Shown here in pieces: positions 54,567-61,878 of a stretch of DNA of 62,120 nucleotides. Origin of the DNA: an uncultured Desulfosporosinus sp. (GTDB lineage Bacteria > Bacillota > Desulfitobacteriia > Desulfitobacteriales > Desulfitobacteriaceae); the NCBI GenBank assembly GCA_927405585.1, contig CAKMJS010000047.1, positions 1 to 62,120 of the forward strand, in the 5' to 3' direction. Under the pieces are notes generated by a model. The model worked only from the letters and a program-made list of their open reading frames with translations. It made no database searches and had not been told where the DNA came from. The translations under genes were made by a program, and so were the position numbers. Each line of letters opens with the position of its first letter. The first letter of the stretch is position 1.

Positions 54567-56210
54567 ATGAGTATGTTTTGTTATCAGTGTCAGGAAACAG
54601 CCAAAGGAACCGGTTGTACGGTTAAAGGGGTTTGCGGGAAACCCGAAAATGTTGCCAAATTGCAAGACCTTCTGATTTACACCTTAAAAGGAATCGCAGT
54701 TTACGCGGTTCAAGCGCGTGAACTTGGGATAGTGCGCCCGGATGTTGATAAGTTCATCATGGAAAGCCTCTTTAGTACGATTACTAACGCAAACTTCGAT
54801 GCAAGTCGTTTCGTAGATCGAATTCAAGACGGTCTCAAACTCCGCGAAGAACTCAAACAAGAAATCCTTAAAGCAGGGGGCACAATCTCAGAAAATCAAA
54901 ATGATGCAACAACTTGGACAGCACCTGCCGCTGAGTTCGAAGCGAAAGCCGCTCTCGTTGGAATCTTAGCAACTGAAAATGAAGATGTTCGCTCCCTCAG
55001 AGAACTGATCACTTATGGTTTAAAAGGAATTGCCGCATATGCTGAGCATGCATATACTTTGGAATATCAAGAACCAGGCATCTTCGCCTTCATTGAGAAA
55101 GCCTTGGCAGCCACACTGGATGACACACTAGCGGCCGGTGATCTCGTTGCCCTTACCTTAGAGGCAGGAAAATACGGTGTTGAAGTGATGGCCCTACTCG
55201 ATAAAGCCAACACGACCTCCTACGGAAACCCAGAACTCACTAAAGTAAACATCGGGGTTCGGAATAACCCAGCTATTCTGATCAGTGGTCACGATCTAAA
55301 AGATCTCGAAGAGTTATTGATCCAAACTCAAGGATCCGGCGTGGATGTCTATACACACGGGGAAATGCTCCCAGCCCATTACTACCCAGCCTTTAAGAAA
55401 TATGATAATTTTGTCGGTAACTACGGAAATGCTTGGCATAAACAAGTCCAAGAATTCGATTCCTTTAACGGTCCAATTTTCTTAACGACCAACTGCCTTG
55501 TTCCGCCGAAAGATTCCTACAAAGATCGTGTCTACACCACTGGAGTGGTCGGCTTCGAAGGCGTCAAGCACATCGCGGACCGTGCAGATGGTAAGCCGAA
55601 AGATTTCTCAGCACTTATCGCCCATGCCAAGGCTTGCCCAGCACCGACGGAAATCGAGACCGGTGAAATCGTAGGAGGATTTGCCCATAATCAAGTCCTG
55701 GCACTCGCTGACAAAGTTGTCGATGCGGTAAAAACCGGAGCCATTAAACGTTTCTTCGTCATGGCTGGCTGTGACGGTCGAATGAAGAGTCGTAGCTACT
55801 ATGCTGACTTCGCACAAGCACTACCAAAAGATACCGTGATCCTGACGGCAGGGTGTGCTAAATACCAGTACAATAAGTTGGACCTCGGAGACATCGGTGG
55901 CATTCCAAGAGTGCTCGATGCAGGACAATGCAATGACTCTTACTCCTTGGCTGTGGTTGCACTGAAACTGAAAGAAGTCTTTGGCCTTGAGGACATTAAT
56001 CAACTTCCAATCTCCTACAACATCGCTTGGTACGAGCAAAAAGCGGTCATCGTTTTACTAGCTCTACTCTCCCTTGGCGTAAAGAATATTCACTTAGGAC
56101 CGACACTACCAGGCTTCTTGTCTCCGAATGTCGTAAACGTGTTAGTTGAAAACTTTGGCATTGCAGGGATTTCCACTGTTGAAGAAGATGTCAAAATGTT
56201 CATGGCGTAA
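54567..56210 (+). CDS. hcp: Hydroxylamine reductase / hybrid-cluster protein
   Basis: A 547-residue Hcp of the anaerobe class. The N-terminal cluster motif is [19 protein letters not shown] (C-x2-C-x8-C-x5-C). Hybrid-cluster ligands are visible in [60 protein letters not shown] and [10 protein letters not shown]. It reduces hydroxylamine or nitric oxide under nitrosative stress. ATG behind AGGGGG. No hcr reductase follows. Confidence 0.96.
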
Positions 56211-56544: not shown

Positions 56545-57876
56545 ATGGATTTTGATAGAATTAATGATTTATTATTGGCTAAGAAGTACTCACTGCTCAA
56601 AGAAGAGTTACTTAAGGAACAAAATGCAGATATTGCCGAGTTTATCGATGAATTAGACCCTAAGACTACCCTTTTGGTCTATAGATTACTGCCAAAAGAA
56701 ATTGCAGCTGATGTCTTTGCTAACCTGTTTCCGGAGAGTCAGTCACAGCTATCGATGCAGATTAATGAGAAGGAACTTCATGATATTTTAGAAGACCTTT
56801 CCTTCGACGATAAAATCGACTTTTTAGAAGAAATGCCTGCTAATATGGTTAAGAGGATTCTTAAAAACGCTCCGGAATCCGAGAGAAAGCTTATCAACCA
56901 GTTTCTTAATTATCATGAAGATTCTGCAGGGAGCTTAATGACCATTGAGTTGGTAAATTTAAAAAAGGAAATGTCGGTTCAAGACGCTTTAGATAAAATT
57001 AGAAGAAACGCACTGGATAAAGAGACGATCTATACCTGTTATGTTACGGATGCTAGCCGTCACTTAGAAGGGATTGTTTCTTTAAGAGATTTGGTTATCG
57101 CCGCTCCTACAAAAAAAGTTGAAGAAATCATGCGCAAGGAAATGATTTCTGTTACTACCTCAGAGGATAAAGAGTATGTTGCTGAACTAATCAGTAAATA
57201 TGACTTATTAGCGATTCCCGTAACAGATAACGAAAATCGATTAGTAGGCATCATCACCGTCGATGATATTGTCGACGTCATTGAAGACGAGAATACAGAA
57301 GACTTTCATAAAATGGCTACGGTTGGAAAGATTGACATAAACCTGTTGGATGCTAGCCCCTTCTTACTCATCAAAAAACGACTCCCGTGGTTGATGGTGT
57401 TGATATTTATGAATATTCTTTCTGGAGCGGGCATCGCACACTATGAAAAAACCATTCATGCAGTGATCGCGCTAGTATTCTTTATGCCATTATTAATAGG
57501 TAGTGCCGGTAACGCAGGTTCTCAATCCTCTACCCTGATGATACGGTCTTTAGCTATTGGCGATGTCGAAATTAGTGACTGGTTTAGTTTACTCAGAAAA
57601 GAAATTGTGGTTGCAATTCTGTTAGGCTTGGTAATGGCAGTTGCGGTCTCAATCATTGGAATGTTCAGGGGAGGACCTGATGTGGCAATAATCGTCGCTT
57701 TATCGATGGTAGTTGTAGTATTAGTCGGTTGTACCATTGGAATGTCCCTGCCATTTTTACTTAGCAAACTAAAGATGGACCCCGCGACGGCAAGCGGGCC
57801 TCTGGTGGCATCGATTGCTGACATTGCAGGGATATTAATTTACTTCTCGATAGCTACTTGGTATTTAGGGCTCTGA
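56545..57876 (+). CDS. mgtE: Magnesium transporter MgtE
   Basis: A 443-residue channel-type transporter: an N-terminal helical domain (LPKEIAADVFANLFPESQSQ), two CBS domains (GIVSLRDLVIAAP; LVGIITVDDIVDVIEDENTEDFHKMA) that sense Mg2+, and five C-terminal membrane helices (GSAGNAGSQSSTLMIRSLA is the pore signature). ATG behind TTGGAGG. It is under the M-box and ends at a strong terminator. Confidence 0.96.
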   Translation: MDFDRINDLLLAKKYSLLKEELLKEQNADIAEFIDELDPKTTLLVYRLLPKEIAADVFANLFPESQSQLSMQINEKELHDILEDLSFDDKIDFLEEMPANMVKRILKNAPESERKLINQFLNYHEDSAGSLMTIELVNLKKEMSVQDALDKIRRNALDKETIYTCYVTDASRHLEGIVSLRDLVIAAPTKKVEEIMRKEMISVTTSEDKEYVAELISKYDLLAIPVTDNENRLVGIITVDDIVDVIEDENTEDFHKMATVGKIDINLLDASPFLLIKKRLPWLMVLIFMNILSGAGIAHYEKTIHAVIALVFFMPLLIGSAGNAGSQSSTLMIRSLAIGDVEISDWFSLLRKEIVVAILLGLVMAVAVSIIGMFRGGPDVAIIVALSMVVVVLVGCTIGMSLPFLLSKLKMDPATASGPLVASIADIAGILIYFSIATWYLGL

Positions 57877-57995: not shown

Positions 57996-58220
57996 ATTGC
58001 ATTTCTAAGAAGGAATGTTTCATGTCTTTGGAGGGTTTATAAATTGCCAGAAATTAAAAACAAAAGAAAGGAACTTTTTCACGTTAGCATGCATCTAGAG
58101 GATAGAAGTAGACGGGAAGGGATAATAAATGGATATAGACCCAAGCTGAGACTAAAACAAAACTAAAACTACAAAGACTAAGACTAAGAGAAAATTGAGG
58201 GTGGAAGGAGTGCGAGAAAA

Positions 58221-58427
58221 ATGAGTGCGGAGTTAGCGAACATTCCATGGAGTTTGGTTATACCGATTATTATTATTCAAGTAATGCTACAAGTGGCTTC
58301 TTTGATCAGCCTGGTGCGAAGTGATGGAGTTCAGAGAGGAAATAAGATTATTTGGGCAATTATCATCGTGGTATTTAGTTTAATGGGTCCTGTACTATAC
58401 TGGACTCTCGGGAGAGAAGCCCAATGA
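58221..58427 (+). CDS. YxlE-like small membrane protein (PLD N-terminal-type)
   Basis: A 68-residue protein with two membrane helices (SLVIPIIIIQVMLQVASLISL; IIWAIIIVVFSLMGPVLYWTLGR), the PLDc_N/YxlE form. In Bacillus subtilis YxlE belongs to the sigY operon and affects SigY activity. Its stop overlaps the next ATG by 4 bp. ATG behind GGAAGGAG. Confidence 0.85.
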   Translation: MSAELANIPWSLVIPIIIIQVMLQVASLISLVRSDGVQRGNKIIWAIIIVVFSLMGPVLYWTLGREAQ

Positions 58428-59329
58428 TTGAATGCAAAAGAGTTAGTAAGAAGTTTGGAACGTTCAAGGCCTTGGAAAACGTCAGTTTTCGCATACCAAG
58501 TGAGAAGTGCTATGGTTTCTTGGGCCAAAATGGAGCAGGTAAGACAACAGTTTTGCGTATGTTGGTGGGTTTGCTCCGGCCGGATCAAGGGGAAATATTC
58601 GTTGCTGGACAGTCTCTTCTTACCGAACGGCAGAAGGTTCAGAAGCTCTGCGGATATCTTCCACAACGTCCTGAGTTTTATCCGTGGTTAAGTGGTGAGG
58701 AGTTCCTTAGGCTTAGCGCGGAATTAGTGGGTGTGCCAGCACGCCAGGCGAAAAAAGCTGCGGGCAAGTATTTGGATACGGTTGGTTTGTCGGAATTTGC
58801 TCGCCGTCGTGTGGGTAAATACTCGGGTGGCATGCAGCAACGCTTAGGTTTAGCCTCTGCGTTGATCGGAGACCCCCCGGTGCTCTTATTGGATGAGCCG
58901 GTGTCAGCGCTTGATCCGCAAGGGCGAGATGAAGTGTTTTCCTTATTAAAAAAACTAAAACAGGAAAAAACCATCTTTTTATCCAGCCATATCCTACACG
59001 ATATTGAGCAGGTGTGTGATGGGGTGGTCATCATCCATAAGGGACAAATCAAGGCACAGGGAACTATGCCTGAGTTATTAAAGCAAAGTGGAGAAAGCAT
59101 AGTTAGGACTCAGGTGCACTTCGAAGTGGACAGTCGCCTGATGAACCAGTTGCAGGCCGGATTTAGCGGTGCCCTGCAGGGTGTTGGGGTTCCAGTCAGC
59201 AATGTAGCTTGGCAGGAACAGGGATTGGAACAATTTTTCTATAAGGTTGTCAAGCAGGCTGAAGAAGAACAACGTCAAAATTCAAGTTCGGGTCAAGGAG
59301 GGGCTAAAGATGGCAATATGGCTCGCTAA
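58424..59329 (+). CDS. ABC transporter ATPase (YxlF-like)
   Basis: A 301-residue ATPase: Walker A GQNGAGKTT, signature KYSGGMQQRLGLASAL, Walker B VLLLDEPVSALDPQG, and H-switch SSHILHDIE. A C-terminal extension of about 80 residues is present. It powers the permease encoded next and is translationally coupled to both neighbours. Substrate unknown; relatives export peptides or help immunity and stress response. Confidence 0.92.
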   Translation: MIECKRVSKKFGTFKALENVSFRIPSEKCYGFLGQNGAGKTTVLRMLVGLLRPDQGEIFVAGQSLLTERQKVQKLCGYLPQRPEFYPWLSGEEFLRLSAELVGVPARQAKKAAGKYLDTVGLSEFARRRVGKYSGGMQQRLGLASALIGDPPVLLLDEPVSALDPQGRDEVFSLLKKLKQEKTIFLSSHILHDIEQVCDGVVIIHKGQIKAQGTMPELLKQSGESIVRTQVHFEVDSRLMNQLQAGFSGALQGVGVPVSNVAWQEQGLEQFFYKVVKQAEEEQRQNSSSGQGGAKDGNMAR

Positions 59330-60077
59330 AGAGGCCCGAGAGATGGTTAGGCTGGGACGTTGGATACCGTTGGTCGCGGTTTACCTGTTCCTAGGGGTCT
59401 TACAACCAATCACATTTAAACTAATGCCGTTAATTTTGAGCTCGGCCAGCAACTTGCCAGAAGGCACAGTGATTCATATTCCTCCGCCCACAGTGGATCA
59501 GGTGCTTTATAGTATCATTGGCCAATATAACCAATTAGGTATTCTTGCTCTTATCCTAGTAGGAATGGGCTTGATTGCAGGTGAGCGTAAACTTGTTGGG
59601 GAATGGTTATGGAGTAAACCCGTCAACATCACTCACTACGTTTTGGCCAAGTATAGCGTGTTTTTCCTGGTGGCTGCTCTCTCCTCGTTGGTGGGACTAG
59701 GAATCGGGGCCTATTACACTGTCGAATTGATCGGTCCCGTAAATTGGAGTGCCCTATGTCAAGGAGCCCTTCTCTATGTTTTATATCAAGCGTTTCTGAT
59801 TAGCTTGATCCTGTTGGCCAGTGCTCTTGTCACGAGTACGACCTTGGCTGGTGGATTAGCTTTGATTAGTATTGTGTTAGTGAACCTACTTTTACCGATG
59901 GTGTGGCAGGGTCATTTTGTTTCTGGGCTTTTAGAGTTAATTCAAGCGACCCTGAGTCAAACCGCCTGGTCACGCTCTACGCCTTTCTGGGAACCGATTG
60001 TCACCACATTGATGGGGACTGCACTTCTGATAGGTTTACAAATTCCTTTATTGGCTTGGAGGAAAACCTCCCATTAG
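59310..60077 (+). CDS. ABC transporter permease (YxlG-like)
   Basis: A 255-residue membrane protein with six helices (PLVAVYLFLGVLQPITFKLM; LGILALILVGMGLIAGERKL; ALVTSTTLAGGLALISIVLV), the ABC-2 permease pattern with the GERKLVGEWLWSKPV loop. ATG 59310 is chosen because GGAGG precedes it; it overlaps the ATPase gene by 20 bp. Confidence 0.88.
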   Translation: MAIWLAKEAREMVRLGRWIPLVAVYLFLGVLQPITFKLMPLILSSASNLPEGTVIHIPPPTVDQVLYSIIGQYNQLGILALILVGMGLIAGERKLVGEWLWSKPVNITHYVLAKYSVFFLVAALSSLVGLGIGAYYTVELIGPVNWSALCQGALLYVLYQAFLISLILLASALVTSTTLAGGLALISIVLVNLLLPMVWQGHFVSGLLELIQATLSQTAWSRSTPFWEPIVTTLMGTALLIGLQIPLLAWRKTSH

Positions 60078-60153: not shown

Positions 60154-61878
60154 GTGATTGAACGAAATGAACTAATTAAGAAGGCTCAAGCGGGGGATTT
60201 AGTGGCCTGGGAGTCATTGCTAGCTCAGGTTTATCCTCTGGCCTTGCGTCAAGCGCGGGCAATGTTGCGTGATTCGGACCTCGCTGGGGATGCCGTGCAA
60301 AATGCTTTGCTTAAAATGCATACTCACCTGCATACTCTCGTCGAGATTGCGGCCTTTTCTGCTTGGTGGCGTCGAATTGTTACGAACGAAGTCTACATGA
60401 TTCTCCGGCTGAAACAACGGGAAACAGAAGGCTTTGAGCAAGGAATTCTACAACAAATCGGCCTTGCGGTGGATGAGTTGGTCGTGATGCGTTGCGAACT
60501 GGCTCGAGCGCTCCAGCTATTACCCATTGATCAACAACAGGTCGTGATTGACGTGGATTTGTTGGGAGTTAGTTTGCTGGAAGTCGCTGAACGGAACCAG
60601 ATACCCGTTGGAACCGTTAAATCTCGATTGTTTCGTGCTCGGGAACGGCTTCAACATCATCTCGAGGTATTTCGGGAAGTACGAAAGGAGAAAAAGAAAA
60701 TGGAAGATAAAATGGCGATTAACTTAACTGACCTGTTTTATAGCTATTTGGAAGAAACTATGAACGGAGCAGAGAGGGCGAAGTTTGAACTGGATTTGGC
60801 TAAACACCCGGAGTGGGCGAAGGAACTTCGACGCCACAAGGATTTTCTAACCTTGCTCCATACGCTGACAGGTAAAATGACACTCAGTTCAACAGAAATC
60901 ATGGAAAAAATTCAGATTGTAACGGCCCAACTTAAGGATTATGAGCAAATAGTTGACGACACCTACTTTGAGCAAGGTACCCCCCAAACTTTGACATCGC
61001 ATAGTTGGTTTCTGACTCCAGACTTGTACCGAGTGGAATCACGTCATCCCTTAATGGGTGAAGTTGTCGTTGTGGTCAAAGGAGTTGAGGCCCTAACCTA
61101 TATGGAAGATGCCAAACAAGCAGTGAAAATTAAGGTTAGTGAGGACTTTAGGAAACAAATGGGTCTCGATTTTACTGATTCTCTGAAGTTGATGGCTGCT
61201 GATCGAAATAGTCGTACGCTGGGGACTGAATACGTTAATGGGCGCCCAACTCTGCATCTTCAATTCAATCAGAAAGTCAGTGGCAAAGAGGATATGGTGA
61301 CTCATTTGTGGATGGACAAAGACACTTGGATGCCGCTGGTGACGGAATTGTACAATGCCAACCATGAATTGGTGCAACGCAAAGTGGTTCGGGAACTTCG
61401 TTTAAATCAAGGTTTATCCAATGAACTGTTTAATTTACTCTTACCATCTGATATTCAAGTGTTGGATAACACTCAGGAGATTATTCAACCGATCGAGGAA
61501 ATTACGCTTCAAGAGGTGAAGGAACGCTTGGGTGAGCAACCCTATCTTTCGGACGGGGAATTCCAGACTATGCATCAGTGGATGAAAATGCCGGGTGGCG
61601 AAGGGGTATTGTTAACTCAATACTTCGTATCTGGGGACCCGATAGCGAAACTAACCGTGTCACAGGGCAAAGTTGCGCATGCTAATATACCGCCGCAATT
61701 AGAGTTAACTCCGGTGAGCTTTGAGTTTGCTAGTGCAAAGATTGAAGGCTCTTACTTGGAATTAGGTTTGAAACCATTTAAAGTATTCCTTGTATGGAGT
61801 TATGCAGATCGATACTATACGGCGGGAGGCGATTTTGATCAGAAAGGACTTTTATTGGCGGTGAGTAAACTTTCCTAG
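60154..61878 (+). CDS. ECF sigma factor fused to anti-sigma-like and LolA-like domains
   Basis: A 574-residue protein. Residues 1-70 are sigma region 2 (AQAGDLVAWESLLAQVYPLA; DSDLAGDAVQNALLKMH) and 110-170 region 4 (LPIDQQQVVIDVDLLGVSLL; RNQIPVGTVKSRLFRARERL). From residue 183 comes an anti-sigma-like helical bundle (YSYLEETMNGAERAKFELDL) without the H-x3-C-x2-C zinc ligands. Residues about 245-440 look like a LolA/MucB-type beta domain, then a further beta domain. No membrane helix is visible, so all domains would stay in the cytoplasm. An internal in-frame ATG at 60700 has AAAGGAG nine bases upstream, so a separate C-terminal protein of 392 residues may also be made. Confidence 0.8.
   Translation: MIERNELIKKAQAGDLVAWESLLAQVYPLALRQARAMLRDSDLAGDAVQNALLKMHTHLHTLVEIAAFSAWWRRIVTNEVYMILRLKQRETEGFEQGILQQIGLAVDELVVMRCELARALQLLPIDQQQVVIDVDLLGVSLLEVAERNQIPVGTVKSRLFRARERLQHHLEVFREVRKEKKKMEDKMAINLTDLFYSYLEETMNGAERAKFELDLAKHPEWAKELRRHKDFLTLLHTLTGKMTLSSTEIMEKIQIVTAQLKDYEQIVDDTYFEQGTPQTLTSHSWFLTPDLYRVESRHPLMGEVVVVVKGVEALTYMEDAKQAVKIKVSEDFRKQMGLDFTDSLKLMAADRNSRTLGTEYVNGRPTLHLQFNQKVSGKEDMVTHLWMDKDTWMPLVTELYNANHELVQRKVVRELRLNQGLSNELFNLLLPSDIQVLDNTQEIIQPIEEITLQEVKERLGEQPYLSDGEFQTMHQWMKMPGGEGVLLTQYFVSGDPIAKLTVSQGKVAHANIPPQLELTPVSFEFASAKIEGSYLELGLKPFKVFLVWSYADRYYTAGGDFDQKGLLLAVSKLS

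What the first reader, a model, noticed from the sequence alone, without database searches (positions are those of the whole stretch)
60154..61878. Sigma factor, anti-sigma-like domain and LolA-like domain in one soluble protein
LolA/MucB-type domains normally sit outside the membrane on anti-sigma factors. Here one is joined to an ECF sigma through an anti-sigma-like bundle that lacks zinc ligands, with no membrane helix. An internal ATG with AAAGGAG allows a separate 392-residue regulator to be made from the same gene. This would be a self-inhibited sigma that senses a cytoplasmic lipid or hydrophobic ligand, or a way to make sigma and anti-sigma in fixed ratio.
Basis: partly seen in the sequence, partly recalled or inferred. 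Interest (0 to 1): 0.7.

Follow-up and report, generated by a model that had tools for sequence, protein, structure and literature searches.

The report
Sigma factor fused to its inhibitor
In Desulfosporosinus and relatives one gene encodes both a gene-switching sigma factor and, joined to it, a soluble inhibitor of a type normally found outside the cell; a conserved second start site inside the gene probably makes the inhibitor alone as well, and the gene sits in an operon with a drug-exporter-like transporter behind a promoter it probably controls itself.

Summary
The 574-aa ORF (60154-61878) is an ECF sigma (residues 1-172) joined to a zinc-free anti-sigma-like bundle and a LolA/RseB-like region, with no membrane helix. 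The same single-frame architecture occurs in 24 full-length genes in 21 genomes (three genera, down to 34-36% identity), so it is no sequencing error.

The internal start is the strongest part. AAAGGAG-N9-ATG in a fast-changing linker is kept at nucleotide level in 20/20 homologues of the main clades. Two deeper lineages carry a different Shine-Dalgarno/GTG pair at the same junction. By Shine-Dalgarno strength it ranks first of 61 in-frame starts in the window gene.

New here: a promoter motif, GGAAC[TC]TTT-N14-ATC, precedes every testable full-length fusion gene or its operon (window 58070-58095), implying autoregulation. In the window it heads PLDc_N, ABC ATPase, ABC-2 permease and the fusion, a gene set like B. 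subtilis sigY-yxlCDEFG (from memory).

Best reading: a self-inhibited, autoregulated cytoplasmic sigma whose gene also makes extra free inhibitor and which controls an exporter. Release by a hydrophobic ligand is plausible but untested; both structure predictions failed. New variant of a known kind.

The parts
58070..58095 (+). Predicted ECF-type promoter of the operon, GGAACTTTT-N14-ATC (-35 GGAACTTTT, -10 around TGCATC)
   Evidence: The only match in the window, 0.02 expected by chance. Same motif with the same spacing upstream of the fusion gene or its operon in 25 loci examined.
58221..58427 (+). 68-aa membrane protein, PLDc_N family
   Evidence: PF13396 E 1.8e-9, above cut-off. A PLDc_N-like ORF also lies between fusion and ABC ATPase in L087, with a similar ORF in L086.
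58424..59329 (+). ABC transporter ATPase, closest NCBIfam model DrrA-type
   Evidence: PF00005 3.6e-33; TIGR01188 drrA 5e-65, below that model's cut-off.
59307..60077 (+). ABC-2 type permease
   Evidence: ABC2_membrane_3 5e-7. Relatives of at least 40% identity occur in 7 genomes of the order, all beside the fusion gene.
60154..61878 (+). Fusion gene, 574 aa, GTG start
   Evidence: single-frame homologues.
60220..60420 (+). Sigma-70 region 2 (residues 23-89)
   Evidence: PF04542 1.8e-8
60499..60651 (+). Sigma-70 region 4 (residues 116-166)
   Evidence: PF08281 5.3e-11
60684..60690 (+). Internal Shine-Dalgarno AAAGGAG, 9 nt before the internal ATG
   Evidence: AAG-GAG kept in 19/20 homologues (the other AGG-GAG); GAG is the only invariant codon among 25 invariant K/E/Q columns. 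Anti-SD energy -12.9 kcal/mol, rank 1 of 61 in-frame starts. Region unstructured.
60700..61878 (+). Predicted second product: free 392-aa regulator from the internal ATG
   Evidence: ATG in 20/20 homologues inside a variable linker; equivalent GTG starts in L024/L025 and L064/L065.
60724..60939 (+). Anti-sigma-like helical bundle without zinc ligands (about residues 191-262)
   Evidence: In-register alignment with zf-HC2 domains, P 6e-4; helices in low-confidence models only.
61093..61410 (+). LolA_like / MucB_RseB-like domain (residues 314-419)
   Evidence: PF17131 in 22/22 members, best 8e-7; window 8e-6.
61492..61875 (+). C-terminal part, DUF4367-like in half of the homologues (boundaries inferred)
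   Evidence: PF14285 in 11/22 members, best 1.5e-5. The window's own copy does not reach E 0.01.

Best explanation
The gene makes a cytoplasmic ECF sigma factor with a built-in inhibitor. The helical bundle after the linker folds back on the sigma's regions 2 and 4 and keeps it from RNA polymerase. A second ribosome-binding site in the linker makes the same inhibitor as a separate 392-aa protein, so inhibitor is always in excess over sigma and the off state is tight. The LolA/RseB-like part is the sensor: a hydrophobic ligand (a lipid, a peptide or an antibiotic) or a partner protein changes it and loosens the bundle. The freed sigma then reads the promoter GGAAC[TC]TTT-N14-ATC in front of its own operon, raising the exporter-like ABC transporter, the PLDc_N protein and itself. 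Shown by sequence: architecture, its conservation, the internal start signal, the promoter and the operon. Inferred: the second protein is made, the bundle inhibits, the sigma uses this promoter, and the nature of the signal.
For: 24 full-length single-frame fusions in 21 genomes, three genera. Internal SD/start kept at nucleotide level across 44-50% identical clades and re-encoded in two deeper lineages, in an unstructured stretch (197/200 shuffles fold better). Bundle in register with anti-sigma zf-HC2 domains. Promoter motif at 23 of 23 testable full-length genes, including sites that were not used to find it (window, L091, L035, L041). Every relative of the permease of at least 40% identity sits beside the fusion. 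Nearest unfused relative of the regulator is a predicted lipoprotein, E 1.9e-28.
Against: Many lineages (all of type B; L037, L092) have no such ABC operon beside the fusion, and the permease is absent from those genomes, so the exporter is not the only use. Homology of the bundle to anti-sigma domains is weak. Both AlphaFold runs are unusable. No ligand evidence. In one type B gene the internal SD is only fourth best. Some copies have decayed (G001, G029).
Confidence: 0.55

Rival explanations
1. Only the full-length fusion is made. AAAGGAG-N9-ATG is a remnant of a former separate anti-sigma gene, or an in-gene SD that slows ribosomes so that the sigma domain can fold. Regulation is purely intramolecular.
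For: In-gene SD-like sequences are common (other in-frame starts in the window gene reach -12.2 kcal/mol), and K-E-rich linkers make AAGGAG easily: synonymous recoding matches the observed energy in 2-34% of draws per gene.
Against: A remnant would have eroded in lineages 44-50% identical, yet ATG is 20/20 and GAG 20/20 while neighbouring residues vary, and one gene (L006) changes the amino acid but keeps the SD. The deepest lineages keep a strong SD with correct spacing to an in-frame start made of other codons. Pausing alone does not need a start codon at the right spacing.
Confidence: 0.2
2. The sigma is released by proteolysis in the basic linker or the bundle, as proposed for fused anti-sigma sigmas such as IutY, rather than by a ligand-driven change of shape.
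For: Fused anti-sigma ECFs are thought to be activated by proteolysis (PMC8999054). The linker is basic and variable in length.
Against: IutY-type and ECF48/52/53 fusions are membrane-anchored and use regulated intramembrane proteolysis; here there is no membrane helix.
Confidence: 0.15
3. The LolA-like region is not a sensor but a scaffold or docking surface, for example for the PLDc_N or ABC membrane proteins, which report transporter load to the sigma.
For: PLDc_N and ABC genes travel with the fusion in two distant lineages.
Against: Most type B genomes keep the LolA-like region without these genes.
Confidence: 0.15
4. Sequencing or assembly artefact: two genes run together, or a membrane helix lost through an error.
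For: None found.
Against: 24 independent single-frame genes without a membrane helix, several in one-contig genomes.
Confidence: 0.01

Closest known systems
ECF sigmas with a fused anti-sigma part: IutY (ECF243), ECF48, ECF52 (SCO4117), ECF53; ECF115 in Bacillus
   Same: Sigma and anti-sigma-like domain in one chain; the review says some extensions came from a translational fusion with the anti-sigma (PMC8999054).
   Different: IutY and ECF48/52/53 are membrane-anchored, and ECF48/52/53 have a zinc finger; here soluble, zinc-free, LolA/RseB-like, and with an internal start for the free inhibitor. ECF115 details could not be read.
Bacillus subtilis sigY-yxlC-yxlD-yxlE-yxlF-yxlG operon
   Same: Recalled from memory: autoregulated ECF sigma with a separate anti-sigma YxlC, a PLDc_N protein and an ABC transporter in one operon. 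SigY is the second-best NCBIfam model for the sigma part (1.6e-17, below cut-off).
   Different: Sigma and anti-sigma are separate genes there; here fused, with a LolA-like part. Best NCBIfam model is SigM, not SigY. No direct sequence comparison with the yxl proteins was possible.
RseA/RseB (MucA/MucB) control of sigma-E
   Same: LolA-fold-like sensor domain acting on a sigma through an anti-sigma; RseA is also a zinc-free anti-sigma domain (PMC7406223).
   Different: RseB acts outside the inner membrane on a membrane anti-sigma; here everything is in one cytoplasmic chain.
ECF41 (SnoaL-like extension)
   Same: Soluble sigma inhibited by its own C-terminal ligand-binding-type domain (PMC8999054).
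   Different: Unrelated extension; the separate internal start is not part of the published description read here.

Membership tests
ECF sigma factor | Regions 2 and 4 only, no region 3 | tested here: met
   PF04542 and PF08281 over cut-off, TIGR02937 56.3 bits over its 42.9 cut-off
ECF sigma factor | Recognises a GGAAC-type -35 promoter, usually its own | tested here: inconclusive
   Motif conserved upstream of 23/23 testable genes; binding not tested
Class I anti-sigma domain | Three-helix bundle plus helix 4 that fits around the sigma | tested here: inconclusive
   In-register weak profile match; models too poor
Class I anti-sigma domain | Hx3Cx2C zinc motif (present in about 56% of class I domains, so not required; PMC7406223) | tested here: not met
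   Ligands replaced in all lineages
LolA_like / RseB superfamily | Profile match | tested here: met
   PF17131 in 22/22 members, one genomic match over cut-off, the rest just under
LolA_like / RseB superfamily | Extracytoplasmic location | tested here: not met
   N-terminal sigma domain, no signal peptide or membrane helix
SigY-type operon | Sigma with PLDc_N, ABC ATPase and ABC-2 permease in one autoregulated operon | tested here: met
   in two lineages only
SigY-type operon | Sigma is the SigY equivalog | tested here: not met
   PRK09638 63.8 bits against a 194 cut-off
Membrane-anchored fused ECF (IutY, ECF48/52/53) | Transmembrane helix | tested here: not met

The most novel reading that the evidence does not exclude
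A single gene encodes, by two in-frame starts, both a sigma factor covalently joined to its inhibitor and an excess of the free inhibitor, with a LolA/RseB-type sensor moved into the cytoplasm, as an all-in-one autoregulated switch for an exporter.
Probability: 0.55. Interest if true: 0.75.

Novelty: new variant of a known kind. Interest (0 to 1): 0.62.

Why it matters
Sigma and anti-sigma are usually two genes and their ratio sets the switch. Here evolution has kept them in one frame and also kept a start site that gives the inhibitor alone, so the ratio would be written into one mRNA. It would show how a membrane-linked, outside-sensing module becomes a one-piece cytoplasmic sensor, and it comes with its own promoter, so it can be tested in a laboratory host with very few parts. 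The literature searches made here found no report of a sigma/anti-sigma gene with an internal start, though the main ECF classification paper itself could not be read.

Tried and rejected
Artefact (frameshift, missing stop): rejected by 24 single-frame homologues. Hidden membrane helix: none in the homologues; the 2.37 peak in L025 lies upstream of the plausible start. Ubiquitin matches of the profile are sums of repeated sub-threshold matches in polyubiquitin and are spurious. A promoter pattern with one base too many found no fusion gene and as many hits as its control; it serves as a negative control for the spacing. Genome-wide promoter search for further targets: one other hit in the own genome, the same as the control, so no other target is claimed. 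Extra motif copies in G035, G010 and G048 belong to truncated sigma fragments or to places without the operon. Synonymous-recoding test: the set-level gap is large, but genes are related and per-gene values for type B are 0.03-0.34, so the rank and codon-invariance tests are relied on instead. Search for unfused ancestors in the order: nearest unfused sigmas are 30-35% identical with ordinary zinc-type, membrane-linked partners.

Full report
What is there. The window is contig C47 of a 4.48-Mb draft genome. The nearest named relatives are Desulfosporosinus. The ORF at 60154-61878 is open throughout, starts with GTG after AGGAG, and encodes 574 aa. Residues 1-172 are an ECF sigma: Sigma70_r2 at 23-89, Sigma70_r4 at 116-166, and the general ECF model over its cut-off. 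Residues 314-419 match LolA_like weakly (8e-6) and MucB_RseB more weakly (0.004). Taken over the family the match is firm: 22 of 22 regulators hit LolA_like and 11 hit DUF4367.

Is it an artefact? No. A search of 46 genomes of the family and 74 of the order gives, with the window, 24 full-length single-frame fusions in 21 genomes, from three genera of two families, with pairwise identity down to 34-36%. Outside the order, 398 genomes of the phylum contain no fusion. The best outside relative of the regulator is an unfused predicted lipoprotein with signal peptide and lipobox (L071, E 1.9e-28); weaker ones are lipoproteins or membrane-linked proteins. A search of the whole class adds nothing. 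So the architecture arose once in this order and was kept, and a region whose relatives are extracytoplasmic has become cytoplasmic. No membrane helix is seen in the homologues.

The bundle. Between the sigma and the LolA-like part lies LTDLFYSYLEETMNGAERAKFELDLAKHPEWAKELRRHKD. A profile comparison with 29 zinc-type anti-sigma domains from the same bacterial family aligns this stretch in register (P 6e-4, probability 29%), with D, H and W where the zinc ligands H, C and C stand; in other clades the positions are E/N/W and Q/D/L. Zinc-free class I anti-sigma domains are common (about 44%, PMC7406223). This is good evidence by position and pattern, not proof of function. The structure predictions that should have settled it failed for lack of permitted diverse sequences.

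The internal start. AAAGGAG at 60684-60690 stands nine bases before ATG at 60700. Across 20 homologues of the two main clades and L013 (44-50% identical) the ATG is invariant although the linker around it changes in sequence and length. The codon GAG is invariant, the only such case among 25 columns where K, E or Q is invariant. AAG is kept in 19, and in the twentieth (L006) it is AGG, which changes the residue but keeps the SD. The preceding wobble base is A in 19 of 20 although the residue is P, R or L. Two deeper lineages solve it differently: L024/L025 have a GGGGAG followed by an in-frame GTG, and L064/L065 have a GGAGGAG six bases before an in-frame GTG. By pairing energy with the anti-SD the site is first of 61 in-frame starts in the window gene (-12.9 against -7.4 for the gene's own start), first in six of the other eight genes tested, third in L024 and fourth in L022; combined over five lineages p is about 1e-4, with the caution that lineages share ancestry. 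The RNA there is less folded than 197 of 200 shuffles. I conclude that the free regulator is very probably made.

The promoter and the operon. Upstream regions of fusion genes from different clades share GGAAC[TC]TTT, 14 bases, ATC. The window's site had not been in view when the motif was noticed; the motif then matched once in 62 kb, at 58070-58095, with 0.02 expected, and also at the heads of the L091, L035 and L041 operons. In all, 25 of 26 loci examined carry it exactly: 23 of 23 testable full-length genes plus two partial ones. The odd one, L040 (a broken copy next to a run of N), has a one-base variant. The motif is an ECF-type -35 at constant spacing from a -10, so autoregulation is the natural reading. 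In the window it is followed by a 68-aa PLDc_N protein (1.8e-9), an ABC ATPase of DrrA type, an ABC-2 permease and the fusion. In G047/G048 the order is fusion, PLDc_N-like, ATPase, permease. Relatives of this permease of at least 40% identity occur in seven genomes of the order, in each beside the fusion. This gene set recalls the B. subtilis sigY operon (from memory). Elsewhere the fusion stands without the transporter; in two type B genomes it faces a divergent ABC-F-like gene.

How it most likely works. The inhibitor is in the same chain as the sigma and is also made free from the same mRNA, so the off state is tight. A signal at the LolA-like part, most likely a hydrophobic molecule given what such domains bind elsewhere and what DrrA-type exporters carry, loosens the bundle; the sigma then fires its own operon. 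Shown: anatomy, conservation, start signal, promoter, operon. Inferred: inhibition, signal, second protein. The fact that several clades keep the fusion without the exporter means that its other targets are unknown.

Comparison with the known. Sigmas with fused anti-sigma parts are known (IutY; ECF48, 52, 53), and soluble self-inhibited sigmas are known (ECF41) (PMC8999054). This protein differs by being soluble, zinc-free and LolA/RseB-like, and above all by the internal start. I found no report of the last, but the 2021 ECF classification itself was not in the library, and groups such as ECF115, ECF262, ECF264 or ECF265 may hold similar extensions. I therefore rate it a new variant of a known kind.

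Noticed in passing
L091 5345-5435; window 58151-58189: The leader between promoter and PLDc_N gene holds short six-base tandem repeats (AAGACT / CTAAGTCTTAGT type) whose number differs between species, a possible variable-length leader.
   Followed up: partly
L090 (G001), L094 (G029), L095/L096 (G024), L263 (G035:C73), L264 (G010:C37), L265 (G048:C127): Broken or truncated copies of the fusion or its sigma part, some with the promoter motif still in front; the system is often duplicated and decays.
   Followed up: partly
L081 8479-10404, L088 8239-10191: An ABC-F-like protein of 641-650 aa faces the type B fusion gene divergently in two genomes; such proteins can protect ribosomes from antibiotics.
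   Followed up: partly
G019:C59 and G019:C46; G016:C95; G020:C16 and C72: Some genomes carry two fusion genes, one of type A and one of type B or two of type B.
   Followed up: no
window 54567-56210 and 56545-57876: Hydroxylamine reductase (hybrid-cluster protein) and an MgtE magnesium transporter lie just upstream and look ordinary.
   Followed up: no
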